Of a stretch of 64,000 bases of DNA, positions 6,344 to 17,358 are shown in pieces. The notes under the pieces were generated by a model. The model worked only from the letters and a program-made list of their open reading frames with translations, did no database searches and was not told the DNA's origin. Source of the DNA: Crocinitomicaceae bacterium (GTDB lineage Bacteria; Bacteroidota; Bacteroidia; Flavobacteriales_D; Crocinitomicaceae); the NCBI GenBank assembly GCA_018402525.1, contig JAGYIR010000010.1:372001-436000 (forward strand), in the 5' to 3' direction. Every line of letters starts with the position of its first letter. Positions within the stretch are counted from its first letter, which is position 1. Both the position numbers and the translations under genes were made by a program.

Positions 6344-8065
6344 ATGAACATTGAACTTTCGGATCAGGAGATCCAGCGTAGAGAAAAGCTAACAAAATTG
6401 CGTGAATTGGGGATTAACCCTTATCCAGCTGCATTGTATGCGGTTTCCGATTATTCAAAGGATATAAAGGAAAACTACGAGGAAGGTAAAGTTGTTTGTT
6501 TGGCAGGACGAATGATGTCGCAACGTATTATGGGGAAGGCATCTTTTGCTGAACTTCAGGACGCTCAAGGTAGAATTCAAGTGTACTTTAATCGCGATGA
6601 AATTTGTCCTGGTGAGGATAAAACCTTGTACAACGAAGTATTCAAAAAGTTGTTGGATCTAGGTGATTTTATCGGTGTGAAGGGAAAAGTGTTTAAAACG
6701 CAAGTAGGGGAGGTTTCTGTGCATGTTGATGAGTTTAGCTTGTTGAGCAAATCGCTAAAACCATTGCCATTACCTAAAACGGATGCTGAAGGTAAAGTCC
6801 ACGATGCGTTTACAGATCCAGAGATGCGTTACCGTCAGCGGTATACGGATTTGGTTGTAAATCCACAGGTAAAAGAAATTTTTGTGAAGCGGACGAAATT
6901 GTTTGCAGCAATGCGTAATTTTTTCAACGATGCGGGATACATGGAAGTGGAAACACCGATTTTGCAATCAATAGCAGGTGGAGCAGCTGCACGACCGTTC
7001 ATTACTCATCATAATGCGTTGGATATTCCATTGTATTTGAGAATTGCCAATGAGTTGTACTTAAAACGTTTGATTGTCGGTGGATTTGATGGCGTGTATG
7101 AATTTTCAAAAAACTTCAGAAACGAAGGAATGGATAGAACGCACAATCCTGAATTTACAGCCATGGAAATCTATGTTTCGTACAAAGATTACAACTGGAT
7201 GATGGAGTTTACAGAGAGCTTGTTAGAGCACTGCGCCATTGCGGTCAACGGAACACCAGAGTCGACATTTGGTGAAAATAAAATTAGCTTTAAAGCACCC
7301 TACAAACGAGTAACGATGCGTCAAGCAATCATCGATTTTACAGGCTTTGATATCCAAGGGAAATCGGAAGATGAATTGCGCACAGCTGCTAAGGGAATGG
7401 GAATTGAGGTGGATGAAACGATGGGGAAAGGCAAGCTCATCGACGAGATTTTTGGTGAAAAATGTGAAGGAAATTACATTCAACCGACATTCATCATTGA
7501 TTACCCGAAAGAAATGTCACCGTTGTGTAAAGAACACAGAGAAGACCCTTCGTTGACAGAGCGATTTGAGTTAATGGTATGTGGAAAAGAAATCGCCAAT
7601 GCCTACTCTGAGCTCAATGATCCAATTGATCAACGCGAGCGCTTTGAAGAACAAGTAAAATTGGCAGAAAAGGGAGATGATGAAGCAGGACAATTTATCG
7701 ATCAAGATTTCTTGAGAGCATTAGAATATGGAATGCCTCCAACGTCTGGATTAGGAATTGGAATGGATCGTCTGATCATGTTTTTAACGAACAATCCAGC
7801 AATTCAAGAAGTACTGTTCTTCCCACAAATGCGACCAGAGAAGTTTGAAATGGCGAAGGGACCCGAACTCACTGAAAACGAAAAACTGATTTTTGATATT
7901 TTAGTCAATGAGCAAACGATGGACTTGAATGCCTTGAAGGACAAAGTCGGCTTGAGCAACAAACAATGGGACGTTGCAGTGAAAGGTTTAGCAAAGCATG
8001 GACTGACCAAAGTTTCGAAGTTAGATGATGCGCTTTCAATTGAGCTTGTTGAAAATCAGAACTAA
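6344..8065 (+). CDS. lysS: Lysyl-tRNA synthetase, class II
   Basis: A 573-residue class II lysyl-tRNA synthetase. It has an N-terminal OB-fold anticodon-binding domain (about residues 55-165) and a catalytic core with motif 1 around MEVETPIL, motif 2 FRNEGMDRTHNPEFT, and motif 3 GLGIGMDRLIMFL. It activates lysine with ATP and charges tRNA-Lys in the cytoplasm. The protein is about 70 residues longer than the usual ~500-residue bacterial enzyme; the extra C-terminal segment (about 505-573) looks like a small helical, winged-helix-like domain, as seen in other Bacteroidota LysS. A -7-like element TATCTTTG lies 19 bases upstream of the ATG. Confidence 0.97.
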   Translation: MNIELSDQEIQRREKLTKLRELGINPYPAALYAVSDYSKDIKENYEEGKVVCLAGRMMSQRIMGKASFAELQDAQGRIQVYFNRDEICPGEDKTLYNEVFKKLLDLGDFIGVKGKVFKTQVGEVSVHVDEFSLLSKSLKPLPLPKTDAEGKVHDAFTDPEMRYRQRYTDLVVNPQVKEIFVKRTKLFAAMRNFFNDAGYMEVETPILQSIAGGAAARPFITHHNALDIPLYLRIANELYLKRLIVGGFDGVYEFSKNFRNEGMDRTHNPEFTAMEIYVSYKDYNWMMEFTESLLEHCAIAVNGTPESTFGENKISFKAPYKRVTMRQAIIDFTGFDIQGKSEDELRTAAKGMGIEVDETMGKGKLIDEIFGEKCEGNYIQPTFIIDYPKEMSPLCKEHREDPSLTERFELMVCGKEIANAYSELNDPIDQRERFEEQVKLAEKGDDEAGQFIDQDFLRALEYGMPPTSGLGIGMDRLIMFLTNNPAIQEVLFFPQMRPEKFEMAKGPELTENEKLIFDILVNEQTMDLNALKDKVGLSNKQWDVAVKGLAKHGLTKVSKLDDALSIELVENQN

Positions 8066-8130
8066 GCGTTAGCAATCCAATGAGTAACATATAGTAAAAC
8101 TGTTTAGTGCGCTGTATTTTTGCAATACAT

Positions 8131-8150
8131 CAACTAAATCGGTTTAGTTG
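8131..8150. promoter_or_regulatory. LacI-type palindromic operator candidate O1
   Basis: CAACTAAATCGGTTTAGTTG is a 20-bp palindrome with a single mismatched pair and a central CG step, the classic form of a LacI-family operator. It lies about 90 bp upstream of the lectin-like T9SS gene. A second, related palindrome is centred 56 bp downstream. A LacI-family regulator is encoded about 8 kb away at 16366-17358, the only one in the window; the regulator-site link is inferred. Confidence 0.6.
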
Positions 8151-8187
8151 CCTTACAAGATTAGATACATTTTTGGATCAACCGCTG

Positions 8188-8205
8188 TACTAAACCGATT
8201 TAATA
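8188..8205. promoter_or_regulatory. LacI-type palindromic operator candidate O2
   Basis: TACTAAACCGATTTAATA is an imperfect palindrome (two mismatched pairs) centred between 8196 and 8197. It shares the core CTAAA(C/T)CG(A/G)TTTA with O1. It ends 33 bases before the ATG of the lectin-like gene and overlaps a possible -7 element TAGCTTTA at 8204-8211, a position suited to repression. The two centres are 56 bp apart. Confidence 0.55.
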
Positions 8206-8238
8206 GCTTTAATTTCGTGGTGATTTTAAAGAACAACC

Positions 8239-10035
8239 ATGAAAACACTATTCTTATTTTTAGTACTTTTTGTTACTTTCACCGGCATTGCTTGTCCATT
8301 TGATGGCAATGAAACATTTGCAGGAGCATTGGCTCCAGGCGTTGCCTACCAAACCCAGGGCGGAGTCGCAAGTGGAAATTATTACTCCATAAATGTCTCC
8401 TGCGGAAACACCTACAATTTTAACTTTTGTAACAACGGAGGAGCTGCCGGGTGGGATACTCAGATCACCATCCTGGCGACAGATGGGACAACACAATTGG
8501 CATACAACGACGATGCTTGCGGATTACAGTCAAATGTTACATGGTATGCCAACTTCACCGGAACGATTTACGTGTTGATTTCTCAGTTTAATTGTAATAA
8601 TCTTGGCGGGTCAACTGGGGCCACATTGGCATACAACATGACAATAGGTGCAACGGACCCTTCGTTTAATCTATCTGTTTCTTGTGGCGGAGGTGTAGCA
8701 ACTGTAACAGGAACGACAGGAGGGAGTTTTGCGTTTAATCCAGCTCCTGGTGACGGCGCACAGGTAAATGCAACTACTGGAACGGTGTCCAATGGGACTG
8801 CGGGAACAACATATTTTGTTGAATACACCGTTTGTTCAAATTCTAGTATTGAATCAGTAATCGTTGTTGATGAAGACTGTTTTACGCTGAATGGCAATGC
8901 TCAGTACATTGATGTGAATGGCGAGGACTGTATTCAATTAACCCAAGAAATAAATAATCAGACAGGTTGTGCATGGAGTGGTTCTCAAATCGATTTTAAT
9001 TCCAATTTCTCCCTTTCATTAGATTATTACTTTGGAAACAATATCAATGGTGCTGACGGAAACACCTTTACGTTTCAACCTTCAAGTTCCACCGCGTGTG
9101 GACAGAATGGTGGACAGTTGGGTGCTGGTGGAATTGCCAACGCGCTGGTAGTCGAGTTTGACACTTACAACAATGACTTTCCTGCGCACATTATTGACAT
9201 AGCGTGCGATCATATTGCTGTTGAAATTGACGGAAATATGCTGAATGGAGCGCCTTATTGTGGTCCCGTTTGTGCCAAAGCCGGAGGCGGTAACATTGAT
9301 GATGGAGGTGTGTACGAGGTTGAAATCGCATGGAATGCAGCGACCCAACAATTGGAAGTTTATTTTGATGGTGCATTGAGACTTTCATGTGGTGGAGATT
9401 TTGTCAATACGGTTTTTGGAGGTCAGAACATGGTGTATTGGGGTGCAACGTCAGCTACAGGAGGGCTGAACAATGAGCAGTATTTCTGTCCAAGTACGAT
9501 CGTAATCCTACCTTCGGAATTAGCGTCATTCAATACAATATGCAATGATAAAAGCGAAGTGTTTAATTGGGTGGTGGCTTCGGAAAGCAGAGTAGATTAT
9601 TACCAACTTGAGTGCACTTACGACGGATCAATTTTTTATCCTATCGAACGAATTGAAGCCTTCGGGAACTCCACAAGTGAGATTTATTATTCAACTACTA
9701 TTTTTAACGATGATCCAAAGCAACGCTATTATCGTTTGAAAATCGTCGACGAGAATGGAGAATTTGAAAACACCGATTTGATATCAGGCAGACGATGCGC
9801 ATATTCGTCTGAGCTAATTTCAACTGTGTTTGAGAAAAATAATCTCCTTTCAATTTCGACTTCGGAAGACGTACAGTTAACTATTACGAATCAGTTGGGA
9901 CAAGTTATTTTAAATGATTTCGACTTTAGAAAGAAATTTGAAATGCCTACGGATGGGGTTTCTAAAGGAGTTTATTTTGTTATAGCAACTGCAAAGAATG
10001 GTCAACAAGAATCAAGAAAAGTGATTTTAATGTAG
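8239..10035 (+). CDS. Secreted L-type-lectin-like protein with T9SS type A sorting domain
   Basis: A 598-residue secreted protein. After a signal peptide (cleavage near residue 18) comes a Cys-rich PPC-like beta domain to about residue 135, then a linker and an L-type (legume) lectin-like domain at about 213-425. The lectin core is recognisable from ALVVEFDTYNND, which holds the acidic metal-binding residue, and from the F-D-G-x-L-R-L-S closing strand. Residues ~520-598 form a T9SS C-terminal sorting domain ending in G-V-Y-F-V-I-A and R-K-V-I-L-M, so the protein is probably secreted through type IX secretion and bound to the surface. Likely function is glycan binding; the sugar is unknown. 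Two LacI-type palindromes sit upstream and a strong terminator follows. Confidence 0.82.
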   Translation: MKTLFLFLVLFVTFTGIACPFDGNETFAGALAPGVAYQTQGGVASGNYYSINVSCGNTYNFNFCNNGGAAGWDTQITILATDGTTQLAYNDDACGLQSNVTWYANFTGTIYVLISQFNCNNLGGSTGATLAYNMTIGATDPSFNLSVSCGGGVATVTGTTGGSFAFNPAPGDGAQVNATTGTVSNGTAGTTYFVEYTVCSNSSIESVIVVDEDCFTLNGNAQYIDVNGEDCIQLTQEINNQTGCAWSGSQIDFNSNFSLSLDYYFGNNINGADGNTFTFQPSSSTACGQNGGQLGAGGIANALVVEFDTYNNDFPAHIIDIACDHIAVEIDGNMLNGAPYCGPVCAKAGGGNIDDGGVYEVEIAWNAATQQLEVYFDGALRLSCGGDFVNTVFGGQNMVYWGATSATGGLNNEQYFCPSTIVILPSELASFNTICNDKSEVFNWVVASESRVDYYQLECTYDGSIFYPIERIEAFGNSTSEIYYSTTIFNDDPKQRYYRLKIVDENGEFENTDLISGRRCAYSSELISTVFEKNNLLSISTSEDVQLTITNQLGQVILNDFDFRKKFEMPTDGVSKGVYFVIATAKNGQQESRKVILM

Positions 10036-10097: not shown

Positions 10098-13000
10098 CTA
10101 TCTAATAATATTTACATGACCTGTGAACATTTTTCGTTCATCATTTCTATTGGTTTTCACTTCAATTTTCCAGGTATACGTCCCGTCTTGAACGAGTTTA
10201 CCTCCGTAGGTTCCGTCCCAACCTACATCATAGTTGTGCGACTCCCAGACTATTTCTCCCCAGCGGTTGAAAATGTACATCGTGAAGTCATATGGATCAA
10301 ATCCTTGAGTGAAAATTGGTCTGAAGTGCTCGTTGTAATTGTCCCCATCTGGAGTAAATGTATTTGGGATGTAGAAAATTTCTTCCTCAATTACCGTTAT
10401 TGAAATCCAGGCTGTATCATAGCATATTTCCTGATTAGAAACTACCAACTGGATAGTATGTGTCCCAATTTCATACGTATAGTCATGCGTTGGATGGACT
10501 ACATTACTTGTTGGATTGCCACCACCAAAGTCCCATTCATTGGTTGTTGCATTTGTACTTCCATTGGTGAATGTCACGAGGCCAAATTCTGAACTCATGG
10601 ACATTGGACTGGCGCTAAATGCGGCATTTGGAGAAGGAATGATACAAATAAGTGAAGGCGCCGTACTACTATTTGAGCATCCATTGACTGGATTTGTAAC
10701 AGTAAGTGAAACATCAAAACATCCTGTTTGATTGTAATAATTAGAAACTGAAGTACCATTCGTTGAGCTGTTCCCATCTCCGAAACTCCAAGAGTACTCC
10801 ATACCTGATTGCCCAGAAACTTCTTGAAAGTTAACAGCTAATGCGTCGCAGCCGAACAATGTGTCTGCGACAAAGTTTACCTCTGGTATCACTTGATCTT
10901 CGTTAACCACAATATTTTCAATACTTGTACAGCCGTTAGCAAGGTCTGTAACTGTCAGCACGTACATTCCACCTTGGTTAACAGTTGGTGTCGCTGTATT
11001 GCCCCCAGCCGTAATTCCTGGTCCAAACCACGAGTAACTAACACCAGGAGTTGTTGAAGAACCGTTGATAGTGATTGATGGGAAGTTACAATTAATTGTT
11101 TGGGCGGGTGCAATAGAAATGTTTGGTGGTGTAATATTGATAGTTACGTCCACATCTGTTACACTAACACATCCATTTGACGGATCAGTTACCGTCAACA
11201 CATAATTACCTGGTTGATCAACGGTCGGTGTTGCAGTATTTCCACCAGAAACGATACCGGCCCCTGCCCATGCAAATGTTACACCAGCTGTTGTCGATGA
11301 ACCATTCAAAATAACGGTTGGATCATAACATGTAATCACTTGTTCGTTCCCTGGACTATTGTTAGGAACACCTATATCGTTTGTGACGTCTACAGTCGAT
11401 GTATTGGTGCAGCCATTGGCAGGGTCAGTAATCGTAAGCGTATAAGTTCCAATTTGGTTCACAGTTGGAGTTGCAGTGTTAACACCAGCTGTAATTCCTG
11501 GTCCACTCCAAGCGAATGTTGCTCCTGGAGTAGCCGAAGCACCCGCCAACTGCACGCTCGCTGTAGCACAAGAGATAATCTGGGCTGGTCCTGCGTTTGC
11601 ATCAGGAATGGCAATGTTTTGAGTGATAGTGACATTATCAGTATTGGTACAGCCATTGGCCGGGTTAGTCACTGTTAACACATAGTTTCCGGGTTGATTC
11701 AACGTTGGAGTAGTAGTGTTTCCTCCCGAAACGATTCCAGATCCTGCCCAAGCGAATGTCACTCCAGGAGTTACTGAAGAACCATTTTGAACCACCGAAG
11801 TCACCAGACAAGTGAGTTCTTGAGTTGGTCCAGCTACTGCGTTAGGAATTGCGATATTTTGTGTAATGTTCACATTATCGGTATTTGTACATCCGTTCGC
11901 AGGATCAGTTACTGTTAACACGTAGTTTCCAGGTTGATCGATGGTAGGAGTTGCCGTGTTTCCACCAGAAACGATTCCAGGACCTGCCCAAGCAAAAGTT
12001 GCTCCCGGTGTTGCTGAAGCTCCATTTTGAACGACAGAAGTCACTACGCACGTCAACTCTTGCGTAGCTCCAGCGTCAACATCAGGTGGTGTTAAGTTTT
12101 CAGTTACATTGACGTTCGCATTTGCAGAACAACCATTTGAAGCGTCAAATACTGTTAACACATAATTCCCAGGTTGGTTCACGGTTGGCGTTGCCGTGTT
12201 TCCACCAGAAACGATACCGGGCCCTGCCCAAGTAAACGTAACCCCTGGAGTAATCGAAGAACCATTCAACACAACAGTTGGGTCGTTACAAGTTATTTCT
12301 TGAGCTGCACCAGGATTGACATTAGGTATACCAACATCATTAGCAACATCCACGGTGGAAGTATTTGTACATCCATTTGCAGGGTCGGTAACGGTTAGCG
12401 TGTAGGTACCAACTTGGTCAACGGTTGGTGTCGCTGTGTTTCCACCAGCAATAATTCCCGGTCCAGCCCAGACAAAGGTTGCTCCTGGAGTCGCCGACGC
12501 ACCCGCCAACTGAACGCTCGCTGTAGCACAAGAGATTATCTGTGCAGGACCTGCATTTGCATCTGGTATAGCGATATTTTGAGTGATGTTCACATTGTCC
12601 GTATTGGTACAGCCGTTAGTGGGATCCGTAACAGTTACAACGTAGTTTCCAGGTTGATTAATCGTAGGAGTTGCCGTGTTTCCCCCTGAAACGATTCCTG
12701 GTCCTGCCCATGCGAATGTAGCACCAGCTGTTGCAGAAGCTCCATTTTGGATAATTGATGTCACTAGACAATTCAGTTCTTGAGTTGGTCCAGCTACTGC
12801 GTTAGGAATTGCGATATTCTGTGTAATATTTACATTGTCGGTATTTGTACAGCCGTTTCCGAGATCTGTAACGGTTAAAATGTAGTTACCAGGTTGATTA
12901 AGCGTAGGAGTCGTTGTGTTTCCACCAGAAACGATTCCCGGACCAGCCCATGAGAAAGTAACTCCAGGACTAGTGGATGAACCATTTTGTACGAAGGAGG

Positions 13001-15569
13001 TAACCAAACAATTTAACTCCTGTGTAGGTCCCGCTTCAGCATTGGGAATGCCGACATCGTTTGAAACATCCACTGTCGAGGTGTTGATACAACCTGTTGT
13101 TGGATTCGTTACGGTTAGCGTATACGTGCCAATTTGATTAACGGTTGGTGTGGCTGTGTTTCCACCGGCAACAATTCCGGGTCCAGCCCACGAATAATTG
13201 ATACCTGGAGTCGCTGAAGACCCACTCAATTGAACAGTGGCTGAGGCACATGAAATAATTTGATTTGGACCAGCATTTGCGTCTGGAAGAGGATGCACCG
13301 TAACGGTTGTTACATCCGTGCAGAGTACTCCATTGTCATTTGCTTCAACCGTGAAATCATAGGTTCCAGCAGCGGAAGGCACAGGAACGTTTGTAGGGTT
13401 TTGAGCGTTGCTCACAAAACCACTGGGTCCAGTCCAACTGTATGTAGCACCAGGAATGTTTGATGCAGTAAGATCAACTGTTAATCCAGGGCCGCTGCAC
13501 AAAGGACCATTGTTGTTAGCTGTAACAGTACAAGCACAGTTTTCTACAGTAATAGTTACATCGTCGGTCATTGAGCAACCGTTAAAAGTGACTGTTAAAG
13601 TGTAAGTCGTAGTGACAGCTGGTGAAACGGAAACTTGTCCGTTGATTCCGCCGCCAAGGTTAATTGTACCTGCACCAGCACCGCTAGTCCAAGAGTAGGT
13701 TGCTCCATTGTCTGCTGTAACAGGAGCTGCACCGATTAGCACCGCAGGATCTCCAATACAGATCGTTTGATCTGGACCTGCGTCTGCAGTGGTTCCAGGA
13801 GGCACTGGTATGGTAATGGATGTAGTACACGAATCCGCTCCGTTTGTGTACGTAACCGTATAGGTAGTTGTTTGGGTAATATTGGTGTTTTGGACAGGGT
13901 TGTCATCTCCTCCAGGAACATGCCAATAATTGTAAACGTATGGATTACAATCGACTAGAGAAGAAATGGTTACATTGTCAATTCCCCAGTGGTCATTCCC
14001 TATACCCGAACTTCCTGTTTGTGCCCAGTGAAAGAGTGTGTTCGGCGTCATTGCACCAGGAGGTATCGTATAACAATACTGATTCCAAGCAGTCATAATT
14101 GGGTCGTATCCACCGTTAGGATGGAAGTAGTCAATTTGAACCCATGTAGCACCACCATTGGTGCTGTATTCAAAGTAAACTCCTTCACCGGCTAAATCTG
14201 GACCTTCACATGGTGATGCTCCGCCTTGGGTAGAGAAATCGAGGTAAAAACAAATTTCACCGCCACAAGAAACATCCATTGGCACAGTTTCAATGATCCT
14301 TGGGTGTGGTGCTGAATTCCCCATCCACATGTACGTTCCGCCATCGACTGATGGATCACATGGATTACTAAAATCAGCCGTAATGTTTGTATTCCAACCT
14401 GTTCCTGCATCGCCTGCATCAAAGTCGTTGTCCATTACGAGGTTATACTCTCCTTGCCCAACAGCGGTTAGAACGATGTCCCCACCGTTGCAGTCAAGTG
14501 GTTGAGGAACATTAACACAATTTATAGTTGCTGTCCAGCCAGCTCCTACCACACTTCCATCTGAATCCCAAACGAAGGTCAAACAACCAGTTGTCGAAGT
14601 AATGGTGCCAGGATTGGTGGAACCATGGCCGTAAAACAGTTGAGTGCCAGATGTATTGGGTCCATCGTAAATGGTGAGGTAATCACAACAGTTTTCTAGA
14701 GCCCATTGCGTAAATACGAACTGAAGTTGACCACCAGGCATATCTGAACAAAATGTCTGTGTACCTAGGTTGTTGTTTCCGTAATTTCCTGTTCCTCCTG
14801 GATCGTAAAAAGTCCCTCCACACGTATTGATGACGTTATTAATTGAGTTGTTCGGCATGTTGTATGCTGGACCTCCTACAGGTGGCGGGTTGTAAGTTGG
14901 TGTTGTATATGTTAAATCAACATTACAAGGTTCTGGACATGGAAAACACGAACCTCCGCAGTCTACATCAGTTTCATCACCACTTAAGATTCCATCTGAG
15001 CAATGACAAGGTTCTGGACAGGTAGGTCCACAGTCTATTCCTGTTTCGTTTCCATCTTGGATTCCGTTGTTACAGTCGGAGCAGGGTGGACAAAAACCTC
15101 CACAATCGATACCTGTCTCGAATCCATTTTGAATGCCGTCATTACATGAAATACAGCTAATTGTTGCTTGCCATCCTGAATAGGTAACTGAACCATCAGA
15201 AGTCCAGGTGATATGCAAACAGCCTGAAGTTGATATTATTAAGCCTGGATTGGTAGTGCCCCCAGCGGTTTGAGAATTGTGCAGTTGGGTGCCAGCAGTA
15301 TTGGTTCCATCATAAATTCTAAGAAAATCGAAGTTAGTTTCAACTTGAAACGGAAATCCTGTAAAATCTAAAACTATTTGTCCACCGTTGTTAGAACAAA
15401 TTGTCATTGAAAAATTTTGATTATTGCCATAATTACCAGCTCCACCGGGATCATAAAATGTTCCTGAGCAGGTATTAATAGTGGTGTTTGACATGTTGTA
15501 AACTTGTCCATTCGAACTGTTAATAATAAGAAAGGATAAAAGGGTAATAAGAATTATGGAAATTTTCAT
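10098..15569 (-). CDS. Giant CUB/Ig-like-repeat surface adhesin with T9SS type B (CHU_C) domain
   Basis: A 1823-residue secreted protein. In order: signal peptide (1-21); CUB-like domain (~22-140); three Cys-rich repeats of the form D-G-I-x-x-G-x-E-T-x-x-D-C-G-G (~141-212); a second CUB-like domain (~225-350); a jelly-roll or MAM-like domain (~355-545); two or three Ig/PKD-like domains; ten consecutive 80-residue Ig-like repeats (764-1563); PKD-like domains (~1564-1730), one with W-D-F-G-G-G-N-P; and a C-terminal gliding-motility domain (~1735-1823) with IPNTFTPDGDNYNE, F-N-R-W-G-E and D-G-T-Y-T-W-K. The last domain is the type B T9SS signal. It is probably a long cell-surface filament or adhesin. 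It converges with the lectin gene at a shared terminator. Confidence 0.9.
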   Translation of the reverse strand: MKISIILITLLSFLIINSSNGQVYNMSNTTINTCSGTFYDPGGAGNYGNNQNFSMTICSNNGGQIVLDFTGFPFQVETNFDFLRIYDGTNTAGTQLHNSQTAGGTTNPGLIISTSGCLHITWTSDGSVTYSGWQATISCISCNDGIQNGFETGIDCGGFCPPCSDCNNGIQDGNETGIDCGPTCPEPCHCSDGILSGDETDVDCGGSCFPCPEPCNVDLTYTTPTYNPPPVGGPAYNMPNNSINNVINTCGGTFYDPGGTGNYGNNNLGTQTFCSDMPGGQLQFVFTQWALENCCDYLTIYDGPNTSGTQLFYGHGSTNPGTITSTTGCLTFVWDSDGSVVGAGWTATINCVNVPQPLDCNGGDIVLTAVGQGEYNLVMDNDFDAGDAGTGWNTNITADFSNPCDPSVDGGTYMWMGNSAPHPRIIETVPMDVSCGGEICFYLDFSTQGGASPCEGPDLAGEGVYFEYSTNGGATWVQIDYFHPNGGYDPIMTAWNQYCYTIPPGAMTPNTLFHWAQTGSSGIGNDHWGIDNVTISSLVDCNPYVYNYWHVPGGDDNPVQNTNITQTTTYTVTYTNGADSCTTSITIPVPPGTTADAGPDQTICIGDPAVLIGAAPVTADNGATYSWTSGAGAGTINLGGGINGQVSVSPAVTTTYTLTVTFNGCSMTDDVTITVENCACTVTANNNGPLCSGPGLTVDLTASNIPGATYSWTGPSGFVSNAQNPTNVPVPSAAGTYDFTVEANDNGVLCTDVTTVTVHPLPDANAGPNQIISCASATVQLSGSSATPGINYSWAGPGIVAGGNTATPTVNQIGTYTLTVTNPTTGCINTSTVDVSNDVGIPNAEAGPTQELNCLVTSFVQNGSSTSPGVTFSWAGPGIVSGGNTTTPTLNQPGNYILTVTDLGNGCTNTDNVNITQNIAIPNAVAGPTQELNCLVTSIIQNGASATAGATFAWAGPGIVSGGNTATPTINQPGNYVVTVTDPTNGCTNTDNVNITQNIAIPDANAGPAQIISCATASVQLAGASATPGATFVWAGPGIIAGGNTATPTVDQVGTYTLTVTDPANGCTNTSTVDVANDVGIPNVNPGAAQEITCNDPTVVLNGSSITPGVTFTWAGPGIVSGGNTATPTVNQPGNYVLTVFDASNGCSANANVNVTENLTPPDVDAGATQELTCVVTSVVQNGASATPGATFAWAGPGIVSGGNTATPTIDQPGNYVLTVTDPANGCTNTDNVNITQNIAIPNAVAGPTQELTCLVTSVVQNGSSVTPGVTFAWAGSGIVSGGNTTTPTLNQPGNYVLTVTNPANGCTNTDNVTITQNIAIPDANAGPAQIISCATASVQLAGASATPGATFAWSGPGITAGVNTATPTVNQIGTYTLTITDPANGCTNTSTVDVTNDIGVPNNSPGNEQVITCYDPTVILNGSSTTAGVTFAWAGAGIVSGGNTATPTVDQPGNYVLTVTDPSNGCVSVTDVDVTINITPPNISIAPAQTINCNFPSITINGSSTTPGVSYSWFGPGITAGGNTATPTVNQGGMYVLTVTDLANGCTSIENIVVNEDQVIPEVNFVADTLFGCDALAVNFQEVSGQSGMEYSWSFGDGNSSTNGTSVSNYYNQTGCFDVSLTVTNPVNGCSNSSTAPSLICIIPSPNAAFSASPMSMSSEFGLVTFTNGSTNATTNEWDFGGGNPTSNVVHPTHDYTYEIGTHTIQLVVSNQEICYDTAWISITVIEEEIFYIPNTFTPDGDNYNEHFRPIFTQGFDPYDFTMYIFNRWGEIVWESHNYDVGWDGTYGGKLVQDGTYTWKIEVKTNRNDERKMFTGHVNIIR
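10881..13280 (-). repeat. Ten tandem 240-bp repeats within the adhesin gene
   Basis: Ten in-frame units of exactly 240 bp (80 residues) without gaps. Each has the pattern A-G-x-x-Q-x-(I/L)-x-C ... W-A-G-P-G-I-V-(S/A)-G-G-N-T-(A/T)-T-P-T ... G-x-Y-x-(L/V)-T-V-T-(D/N)-P-x-(N/T)-G-C. By sequence type the order from the N-terminus is A-C-C-A-B-C-C-A-B-D, so units four apart (960 bp) are the most alike. For example, 11815-11858 and 12775-12818 are identical over 44 bp. Confidence 0.95.
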
Positions 15570-16085: not shown

Positions 16086-16365
16086 AATAGTTTAGCGATT
16101 GATTGTTTTTAATCAGTTGGTTTAAAGACATAAAATTAAGTAAAACGTTGCCTATAAGTGCGGTAATTGCATGGATAACTTGGTGTTTTTACGGTGCGAT
16201 TGAATATTTAGTCCGTTTCATTGAGCAAACTAGGCTTTTAGACGAAAATTTAAATTCGACTATACCGATTTAAATGAAGCTAACTATTTGTAAAAAAGAA
16301 TGATAGAGAGGTTTATTCACAAAACGAATGCTTTGAGTTAAATTCTGCAATAATAAAACGTGAAA
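16086..16365. promoter_or_regulatory. 280-bp intergenic stretch with a LacI-like site
   Basis: No ORF of note. ACTATACCGATTTAAA at 16259-16274 resembles the operator candidates near 8131-8205 (shared core ACCGATTTAA). It lies upstream of the minus-strand small secreted gene and just downstream of the LacI-family regulator gene. A weaker GGTTTA half-site lies near 16119. Assignment as an operator is inference. Confidence 0.35.
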
Positions 16366-17358
16366 TTAATGTGAAGCGCGCTCTTGAAATACACAATCAA
16401 GCAAGAAATGTTCGCCGGGTGCTTTGGATTCTTTCAAGCGCTCATAAAGACGATCCACAGATTTCAACCCAATGTCCATGATCGGCAGTCGAAGTGCGCT
16501 GATAGGTGGGTTCATGTATTCAAAAGAGTCACTATCGTCAAAGGAGATCAGTCGCGCGTTTTTTGGTATTTCGACATTGAATTTTTTCAACGCAGCAAGC
16601 ACTGGCAACGTGCATTTATTGTTCAGTGTTAAAAAAGAATCCGTGCCGTCGTCAAGTTCTTTTTTTATCAATGCATCAATTGATGTTTGATCGTTTGGCA
16701 ATTCGATAACCGAAAACTGAATTTTGTTCTTCTCACAACCCTTTTTAGCTCCTTCAATTCTATTTTGAATGGTAGAAACGTCAGAAGGAAATGGCGCCAA
16801 TGCGACCAATTTTTTTGGTTTGACAGAAAATAGATCGACAATTCCTTTGGCTTCATCAACGTTATTTATTCCAACAAAATCAGCATTTTCATCCCCTGGG
16901 CGATCGACAAATACGACTGGAATGTGCGTTGCAACTAAAATTGGGATCAACGCCTGAATGTCGTTGCTTGGAGCGATAATCATTCCATCGATACTTCGTT
17001 GAATTAATTCCGTCATCAATACCTTTTCCAAATCTTTGTCATCGTTCGTGTTGACAATAAAGGTGTTGTAACCAGCGGCAAACAATTTTTCTTGAATACC
17101 CTTGCTCATTTCCGCATAAAACGGATTCGAAATATCTGGAAGTACGAGGCCTATCGTATTTGTTTCGCCATGACGTAAGCTTTTCGCAAAGAAATTGGGT
17201 ACGTACAATAATTCTTTCGCCTTCTCTTTGATTAAGCGTTGTTTTTCCTTACTAATATTAAATTGATCTCCCTTGCCGTTCAGTACAAATGACACCGTTG
17301 CTTTAGATACATCTAAGGCTTTTGCAATGTCACTAAGGGAGGTACGTTTCTCTTTCAT
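16366..17358 (-). CDS. LacI-family transcriptional regulator
   Basis: A 330-residue LacI/GalR-type repressor. The N-terminal helix-turn-helix is clear: SLSDIAKALDVSKATVSFVL in the first 30 residues, followed by the hinge ending LLYVPNFFAKSLRHG. The remainder is a periplasmic-binding-protein-like effector domain (~60-330) with N-T-I-G-L-V-L-P-D-I-S-N-P-F at its start. I choose the ATG at 17358; an upstream in-frame GTG at 17364 would add two residues. Family members bind pseudo-palindromes with a central CG and respond to sugars. No sugar-catabolism genes adjoin it, so its targets are probably elsewhere; the palindromes upstream of the lectin gene and the small secreted gene are candidates. 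Confidence 0.93.
   Translation of the reverse strand: MKEKRTSLSDIAKALDVSKATVSFVLNGKGDQFNISKEKQRLIKEKAKELLYVPNFFAKSLRHGETNTIGLVLPDISNPFYAEMSKGIQEKLFAAGYNTFIVNTNDDKDLEKVLMTELIQRSIDGMIIAPSNDIQALIPILVATHIPVVFVDRPGDENADFVGINNVDEAKGIVDLFSVKPKKLVALAPFPSDVSTIQNRIEGAKKGCEKNKIQFSVIELPNDQTSIDALIKKELDDGTDSFLTLNNKCTLPVLAALKKFNVEIPKNARLISFDDSDSFEYMNPPISALRLPIMDIGLKSVDRLYERLKESKAPGEHFLLDCVFQERASH

What the first reader, a model, noticed from the sequence alone, without database searches (positions are those of the whole stretch)
8131..8205. Paired LacI-type operators upstream of a secreted lectin gene
The sequence shows a 20-bp palindrome with one mismatched pair (8131-8150) and a related 18-bp imperfect palindrome (8188-8205), both with a central CG and the core CTAAA(C/T)CG(A/G)TTTA. 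The second overlaps a possible -7 element of the lectin-like T9SS gene. Their centres are 56 bp apart, compatible with cooperative or looped binding. From established knowledge, LacI-family operators have this form; the only LacI-family gene in the window is at 16366-17358. That a sugar-responsive repressor controls a surface lectin is inference, but a plausible and testable regulatory link.
Basis: partly seen in the sequence, partly recalled or inferred. Interest (0 to 1): 0.55.

Follow-up and report, generated by a model that had tools for sequence, protein, structure and literature searches.

The report
Sugar-type repressor switch for surface lectin
Two DNA landing sites in front of a sugar-binding surface-protein gene match those of a lac-repressor-type regulator encoded nearby, and the trio of regulator, sites and lectin recurs in related bacteria, so the regulator probably switches the lectin on and off.

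Summary
In detail: 8131-8150 is a 20-bp palindrome with one mismatched pair, 8188-8205 an imperfect 18-bp one, centres 56 bp apart, before an L-type-lectin gene (ATG 8239). Such a palindrome alone is no rarer than chance; two copies of the motif within 120 bp are (0 of 20 shuffles). The reading also holds. The assembly has one LacI-family HTH gene, 6.3 kb beyond the lectin. In 10 of 11 same-genus genomes with both genes (this one included) they lie within 6.4 kb. CTAAANCGNTTTAG (at most one mismatch) precedes 16 of 18 lectin homologues and 5 of 626 other genes, 7 of 7 in loci that did not define the motif. The proximal site ends 2-7 bp before a TAnnTTYG box in 11 of 19 promoters. Distant LacI homologues carry the motif before their own start in 7 of 16 loci. 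Of 24 sites elsewhere, 13 lie just before a gene, 11 of them secreted-looking, so the regulon may be wider. Binding, repression and effector are untested. Against: G018 has both genes but no site; lacI itself has none (9 orthologues).

The parts
8131..8150 (.). Distal operator, 20-bp palindrome CAACTAAATCGGTTTAGTTG (14-bp core 8134-8147, starts 105 bp before the ATG)
   Evidence: counterparts in lectin promoters of related genomes, though it lacks the outer TTTA/TAAA arms kept in 8 of them
8188..8205 (.). Proximal operator, 18-bp imperfect palindrome (core 8190-8203, starts 49 bp before the ATG)
   Evidence: similar place relative to the -7 box in relatives
8210..8217 (+). Candidate -7 promoter element TAATTTCG (consensus TAnnTTTG), 6 bp after the proximal core
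   Evidence: TAnnTTTG as the flavobacterial sigma-A -7 box in PMC9723704 (passages)
8239..10035 (+). Secreted L-type lectin, 598 aa: hydrophobic N-terminus, PF18483 domain (residues 213-419), T9SS-type C-terminal tail (below Pfam's cut-off)
16366..17358 (-). LacI-family regulator, 330 aa (PF00356 HTH plus periplasmic-binding-protein effector domain), the only LacI HTH found in the assembly

Best explanation
The two palindromes are operators of the LacI-family protein encoded at 16366-17358. As a dimer it binds the proximal site, just upstream of the lectin promoter's -7 box, and blocks RNA polymerase; the distal site strengthens repression, perhaps by cooperative binding or a loop. When the protein's effector (probably a sugar or sugar phosphate) changes its DNA affinity, the lectin is made, exported by the type IX system and displayed on the surface. 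Shown by comparison: motif, its place in the promoter, its link to lectin genes, and its link to this kind of LacI protein. Inferred: binding, repression, effector, looping, surface display.
For: One LacI HTH gene in the assembly. Synteny: lectin and lacI on one contig, convergent, within 6.4 kb in the window's genome, G019, G028, G026, G018, G021, G010, G004, G009 and G029, that is 10 of the 11 genomes of the genus with lacI and a full lectin; directly adjacent in 6 of the 10. Motif upstream of 16 of 18 lectin homologues vs 5 of 626 other genes, Fisher p 9e-26 (relatives are not independent, so the p overstates); 3 of the 5 share the intergenic region of a lectin and a fourth is the unrelated T9SS gene beside lacI in G016. 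7 of 7 lectin homologues in loci that had no part in defining the motif. Footprint: in 8 promoters chosen for alignment, distal TTTACTAAAnnnGTTTAGTAAAC is invariant and parts of the proximal site and TAnnTTYG are kept amid diverged sequence (the window was not among the 8). Extended palindrome TACTAAANNNNTTTAGTAAA, exact: 8 of 10 places in 34 genomes are lectin promoters. Proximal core ends 2-7 bp before a TAnnTTYG box in 11 of 19 promoters. HTH VSKATVSFVLN and hinge PNFFAKSL invariant in 25 aligned orthologues. LacI homologues from other families carry the motif within 75 bp upstream of their own start in 7 of 16 loci, e.g. CTAAACCGATTTAG in Wocania. Overlapping sites 13 bp apart recur (G026, G021, G009, G011, L203, L222, L226, L232; one partner often weak), a spacing reported for LacI-family sites (PMC4052901, section 9).
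Against: G018 has lacI and lectin adjacent but no site (best score -0.7 bits). In G017 the lectin is a remnant without a site. The window's distal site lacks the outer arms that 8 relatives keep (no match in G000). No site upstream of lacI in the 9 of 26 orthologues checked, whereas 72% of studied LacI regulators are autoregulated (PMC4052901, passage). In the own genome motif counts are not clearly above the reversed control (4 vs 3; 4 vs 4). 15 of 26 LacI-bearing genomes have no full lectin, so the lectin is not the regulator's only reason to persist. In L211 and L227 the motif is imperfect and lies downstream of the best -7 box; in G026 and G021 there is no proximal site. No -33 element was identified.
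Confidence: 0.87

Rival explanations
1. (Compatible with the best explanation.) The sites belong to the LacI protein, but it is a wider regulator of type IX secreted surface proteins; the lectin is only its best-kept target.
For: Outside lectin loci, 13 of 24 sites lie within 200 bp before a gene start and 11 of those genes look secreted; reversed-pattern control 2 and 1 of 27, same-composition swapped palindrome 1 and 0 of 27. Background: 21 of 92 neighbouring genes look secreted. 8 of 10 full-length downstream proteins that I picked have a T9SS tail. In the own genome sites precede a CHU_C protein (C1:10465) and a Por-tail protein (C14:8843). G016 and G008 share a site-bearing CHU_C protein. 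lacI persists in 15 of 26 genomes without a full lectin.
Against: So few control sites lie near genes that the secreted share among near-gene sites does not differ significantly from the controls (p 0.21 to 0.43). Targets differ between genomes; sites are usually single; 11 of 24 sites are not just before a gene; some precede genes that look like housekeeping genes (pyrR- and comF-like, named by recall); total counts are not above the reversed control; my signal-peptide rule is a crude hydropathy test; LacI-lacking genomes G022 and G032 also have a site before a secreted-looking gene.
Confidence: 0.5
2. Another regulator with the same recognition sequence, not the LacI protein, uses the sites.
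For: No direct binding data; LacI-lacking genomes hold a few sites, one a perfect palindrome 119 bp before a 493-aa gene in G032.
Against: Central-CG even palindrome is the usual LacI-family form (PMC4052901); synteny with lacI; distant lacI genes carry the motif at their own promoter; exact 13-mer matches in 15 of 26 LacI-bearing but 1 of 8 LacI-lacking genomes; the lectin of G032, which has no detected lacI, lacks the site, though that genome is only 72% complete.
Confidence: 0.06
3. The palindromes are RNA hairpins, e.g. the terminator of the upstream lysS-like gene or an mRNA leader structure.
For: The first lies 66 bp after that gene's stop and could form a short stem.
Against: No T-run follows and no terminator-like site was found in 8000-8300; proximal sites keep a place relative to the -7 box, and sites also occur where that gene is not next door, as in G026, G021 and G010.
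Confidence: 0.03
4. Chance palindromes in AT-rich intergenic DNA.
For: 20-bp palindromes with one mismatch are expected by chance in 64 kb.
Against: Recurrence before 16 of 18 lectin homologues vs 5 of 626 other genes and the 8-promoter footprint.
Confidence: 0.01

Closest known systems
LacI-family local regulons (Ravcheev et al. 2014, PMC4052901; seen: start of the abstract in a listing, passages by term search, section 9 in full)
   Same: HTH plus periplasmic-binding-protein domain; even palindrome with central CG; sites between about -140 and -30; more than one site per promoter; 13-bp overlapping sites in several relatives
   Different: That survey describes nearly 90% as local regulators of sugar utilisation; here the neighbouring target is a secreted lectin, and no autoregulatory site was found. 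Words beginning adhesi- or secret- do not occur in its main text.
CcpA, RbsR and PurR, among the nearest solved LacI-family proteins (7e5w 131.6 bits; 9ny7; 1jh9)
   Same: Alignment across HTH and effector domain; central-CG operators (recalled)
   Different: Recognition helix SKATVSF, own operator CTAAANCGNTTTAG, and the only LacI HTH found in its genome
L-type (legume-like) lectins, PF18483
   Same: Domain at 146 bits, cut-off 78; E-x-D-x-Y-x-N ... D-H metal-site pattern invariant in 20 homologues (its meaning recalled from legume lectins)
   Different: Bacterial, with other N-terminal regions and a T9SS-type tail
Known control of flavobacterial T9SS adhesins, e.g. the sprB operon of F. psychrophilum (PMC9723704, passages only)
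   Same: Surface protein exported by T9SS under transcriptional control
   Different: There promoters of alternative sigma factors (sigma-54, SM5) are implicated, here a one-component LacI-family protein; the term LacI does not occur in that paper's main text

Membership tests
LacI-family transcription factor | N-terminal LacI HTH (PF00356) | tested here: met
   33.8 bits, cut-off 27; 37.7 bits in the genome search
LacI-family transcription factor | C-terminal periplasmic-binding-protein-like effector domain | tested here: met
   PF00532 61.9 bits, PF13377 53.5 bits, both over cut-off; profile aligns along CcpA, PurR and RbsR structures
LacI-family transcription factor | Even palindromic operator with central CG | tested here: met
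   criterion from PMC4052901 section 9. Some sites in relatives lack the central CG (CTAAATCCGTTTAG, CTAAAATGGTTTAG)
[quoted passage not shown]
   cores start at -105 and -49
LacI-family transcription factor | Autoregulation (common, not obligatory) | tested here: not met
   no motif in 150 bp upstream of lacI in the 9 orthologues checked, the window's included
LacI-family transcription factor | Effector-controlled DNA binding | not testable with these tools
   needs purified protein
L-type lectin | Legume-lectin beta-barrel domain | tested here: met
   PF18483 E 1.5e-42
L-type lectin | Conserved metal-site acidic/Asn/His residues | tested here: met
   E306, D308, Y310, N312, D313, D324, H325 invariant in 20 homologues; role recalled from legume lectins
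L-type lectin | Sugar binding | not testable with these tools
   needs a glycan array
T9SS cargo | C-terminal sorting domain | tested here: inconclusive
   PF18962 22 bits, below the cut-off of 27, in the window protein; above it in homologues L222 and L226

The most novel reading that the evidence does not exclude
In Crocinitomicaceae a single LacI-family protein, taken out of sugar catabolism, acts as a surface switch: it reads an internal sugar signal and controls a changing set of type IX secreted proteins, the L-type lectin beside it being the oldest target, so that what the cell binds is tied to what it senses, perhaps the lectin's own sugar.
Probability: 0.4. Interest if true: 0.62.

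Novelty: new variant of a known kind. Interest (0 to 1): 0.45.

Why it matters
How Bacteroidota choose which of their many type IX secreted surface proteins to display is, as far as I know, little understood (recall). My four searches of the held open-access library for LacI-family regulators with T9SS, lectins or adhesins, and for L-type lectins with T9SS, listed no paper whose title or abstract start makes that link; subscription papers are not held. Here regulator, operator, promoter and target are defined to the base pair and recur in related genomes, so a link between sugar sensing and surface adhesion can be tested with one protein and a 90-bp fragment. The motif also gives a handle for finding further members of the regulon.

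Tried and rejected
Palindrome as evidence by itself: rejected, chance gives as many. Genome-wide over-representation of the motif: not found in the own genome (4 vs 3; 4 vs 4; with up to 2 mismatches 42 vs 89), so the argument rests on position and conservation, not on counts. Terminator or sigma-70 promoter scan at 8000-8300: nothing. Autoregulation of lacI: no site in 9 orthologues. Helical phasing of distal and proximal sites: seven distinct spacings (56, 88, 98, 100, 99, 65, 46) cluster near multiples of 11 bp, p 0.006 with the period scanned from 10 to 11.5; chosen after the fact, from related species, and the 91/104 spacings of L222 and L226 were left out, so it is only suggestive of looping. 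The reversed-pattern control for regulon content was backed by a second, same-composition palindrome. Literature on LacI with T9SS, lectins or adhesins, on T9SS L-type lectins, and on lectins in Fluviicola: one polysaccharide-genome paper and one Enterococcus transcriptome paper, both judged unrelated by title and abstract start, otherwise nothing (listings only). Structure prediction and fold search were not used: both proteins were placed by sequence.

Limits of the counts. One search used the first 26 kb of the window, 25 loci of other genomes anchored on lacI and 29 new loci; its pattern was written after the new loci had been scanned with the earlier weight matrix, which itself came from the first set only. 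L139, L140 and L141 (lectins not on a lacI contig) were outside: L139 has no site, L140 one of 17.2 bits, L141 two above 16 bits. The 8 promoters were those with the extended distal site; the window, G029 and others were left out. Searches used the loci returned by the searches, not every listed place; lectin loci were dropped from the regulon count. The ten proteins were picked by me from site-bearing promoters, mostly ones that looked secreted. An earlier count said lacI is in 26 of 33 relatives; the right count is 25 of 33 (26 of 34 with this genome). The names lysS, M48 peptidase, pyrR, comF and patatin are from recall, not from a call.

Full report
What is there. The window lies in a 3.16-Mb assembly, 98% complete; loci with close relatives of its LacI protein come from records titled Fluviicola sp., Crocinitomicaceae and Flavobacteriales, so the source is probably a Crocinitomicaceae bacterium. 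The protein has an L-type lectin domain (PF18483, E 1.5e-42) and a sub-threshold T9SS tail. The LacI-family gene is at 16366-17358 on the minus strand; PF00356 finds no other LacI HTH in the assembly.

Chance. A gapless 20-bp palindrome with one mismatched pair is expected in 64 kb (2 found; 1 to 8 in 12 shuffles). The cluster of two is not: the window has two CTAAANCGNTTTAG matches (at most one mismatch), one pair within 120 bp; 20 shuffles averaged 0.15 matches and no pair. Genome-wide the motif is rare but not clearly above the reversed pattern.

Conservation. The LacI protein has an orthologue in 25 of 33 same-genus genomes, with recognition helix and hinge invariant in 25 aligned sequences. 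Full lectin orthologues (over 50% identity) occur in 12 of 34 genomes including this one, 11 of which have lacI. In ten of those eleven the lectin lies convergent with lacI on the same contig within 6.4 kb: directly adjacent in G028, G018, G010, G004, G009 and G029, one gene away in G026 and G021, two genes away here and in G019; the eleventh, G011, has the two on separate short contigs. On the far side the lectin is followed by the lysS-like gene in five of the ten and, after three more genes, in G029; not in G026, G021 and G010, and the contig ends in G009. In lectin-less genomes the place beside lacI holds other genes or none.

The lectin promoters. CTAAANCGNTTTAG with at most one mismatch lies in the 250 bp before (or first 30 bases of) 16 of 18 lectin homologues and 5 of 626 other genes in the same loci (Fisher p 9e-26; shared ancestry makes the p too small). 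Three of the five are divergent neighbours of a lectin and share its intergenic region, one is an unrelated T9SS gene beside lacI in G016, the fifth is a 1343-aa gene in L227. In loci that had no part in finding the motif, 7 of 7 lectin homologues have it. Misses: G018 (intact, adjacent to lacI) and G017 (remnant). In 8 aligned promoters the distal block TTTACTAAAnnnGTTTAGTAAAC is invariant while little else is, and parts of the proximal palindrome and the -7 box stand out again. The extended palindrome, searched exactly in 34 genomes, falls on lectin promoters in 8 of 10 places; this genome has no match to it, since its distal site has the core but not the outer arms.

Promoter geometry. The proximal core ends 2-7 bp before a TAnnTTYG box in 11 of 19 promoters: the window (6), G019, G010, G004, G029 (4 each), G009, G011 (5 each), L198, L230 (7 each), L222 and L226 (2 each). 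Of the other eight, G028, one G009 paralogue, L203 and the G016 gene have no box of that form, G026 and G021 no proximal site, and L211 and L227 have the box upstream of the site. TAnnTTTG is the sigma-A -7 consensus in a flavobacterium (PMC9723704, passages). A protein bound there would cover the promoter, hence repression is the likely sense; this is inference. Distal sites lie 46 to 104 bp further up, and several relatives add an overlapping, often weaker, site exactly 13 bp away, a spacing singled out, without agreed explanation, in the LacI-family survey PMC4052901 (section 9).

Which protein. Besides synteny and uniqueness, LacI homologues from other families, found by peptide patterns of helix and hinge, carry the motif (13 bits or more) within 75 bp upstream of their own start in 7 of 16 loci, at 25-34% identity to the query: CTAAACCGATTTAG in Wocania ichthyoenteri, CTAAACCGCTTTAG in a Flavobacteriaceae MAG, a 13-bp tandem GTAAACCGATTTAGTAAACCGATTTAG in Ancylomarina, and looser versions in four Bacillaceae. 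The motif therefore tends to go with this kind of recognition helix.

Beyond the lectin. Of 24 distinct degenerate-motif sites elsewhere in the genus, 15 are intergenic, 13 within 200 bp before a gene start, and 11 of these before a gene with a signal-like N-terminus; a reversed pattern gave 2, 2 and 1 of 27 and a palindrome of the same composition 2, 1 and 0 of 27. Against all sites the excess is clear (p 0.0006 and 0.00005); among near-gene sites alone the secreted share does not differ significantly from the few controls (p 0.37 and 0.21), though it is well above the 21 of 92 neighbouring genes. Of ten full-length downstream proteins that I picked, eight carry a T9SS tail. In this genome the further candidates are a CHU_C protein followed by a collagen/S74 protein (C1:10465) and a Por-tail protein (C14:8843). 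The regulator may thus head a small regulon of surface proteins, which would explain why lacI persists where the lectin is lost. Against it: total counts are not above control, targets differ between genomes, some sites precede other kinds of gene, and LacI-lacking G022 and G032 each have a site before a secreted-looking gene.

Verdict. As biochemistry it would be an ordinary LacI-type operator pair; the target is what is unusual. Binding, sense of regulation, effector and looping remain to be shown.

Noticed in passing
window 16260-16273: Weak third motif match CTATACCGATTTAA (13.7 bits, 2 mismatches) between lacI and the 158-aa gene, upstream of that gene and the 1823-aa CUB/PKD protein; could be a third target.
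   Followed up: partly
L148:6466 (G000 C1:10465) and L308:844 (G000 C14:8843): Operator-like sites 83 and about 110 bp before the start of a CHU_C protein (followed by a collagen/S74 protein) and of a Por-tail protein: candidate further regulon members in the same genome.
   Followed up: partly
L128:11766 (G016): In a genome without the lectin, the place beside lacI holds an unrelated T9SS protein (464 aa), and that gene carries the operator.
   Followed up: yes
L013, L062, L063: A motif variant lies 45-170 bp upstream of pyrR-like genes (name recalled; proteins 85-88% identical) in G000, G028 and G004; may be a different regulator's site.
   Followed up: no
L113:11740, L115:11176, L120:7650, L141:5868, L203:7504, L222:13307, L226:6314, L232:9958: Recurrent overlapping palindromes exactly 13 bp apart (one partner often weak), a LacI-family spacing that PMC4052901 reports without a settled explanation; for L222 and L226 the overlapping pair is the distal one.
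   Followed up: partly
L121, L124, L127, L129, L130: Beside lacI there are often one or two patatin-like genes (name recalled; QGGGFRTG motif) instead of, or besides, the lectin; no motif match was seen before them.
   Followed up: no
window 10098-15569: 1823-aa secreted protein with CUB, repeated PKD-like stretches and a CHU_C tail, lying between lectin and lacI here and in G019 but in none of the other eight lectin-lacI loci.
   Followed up: no
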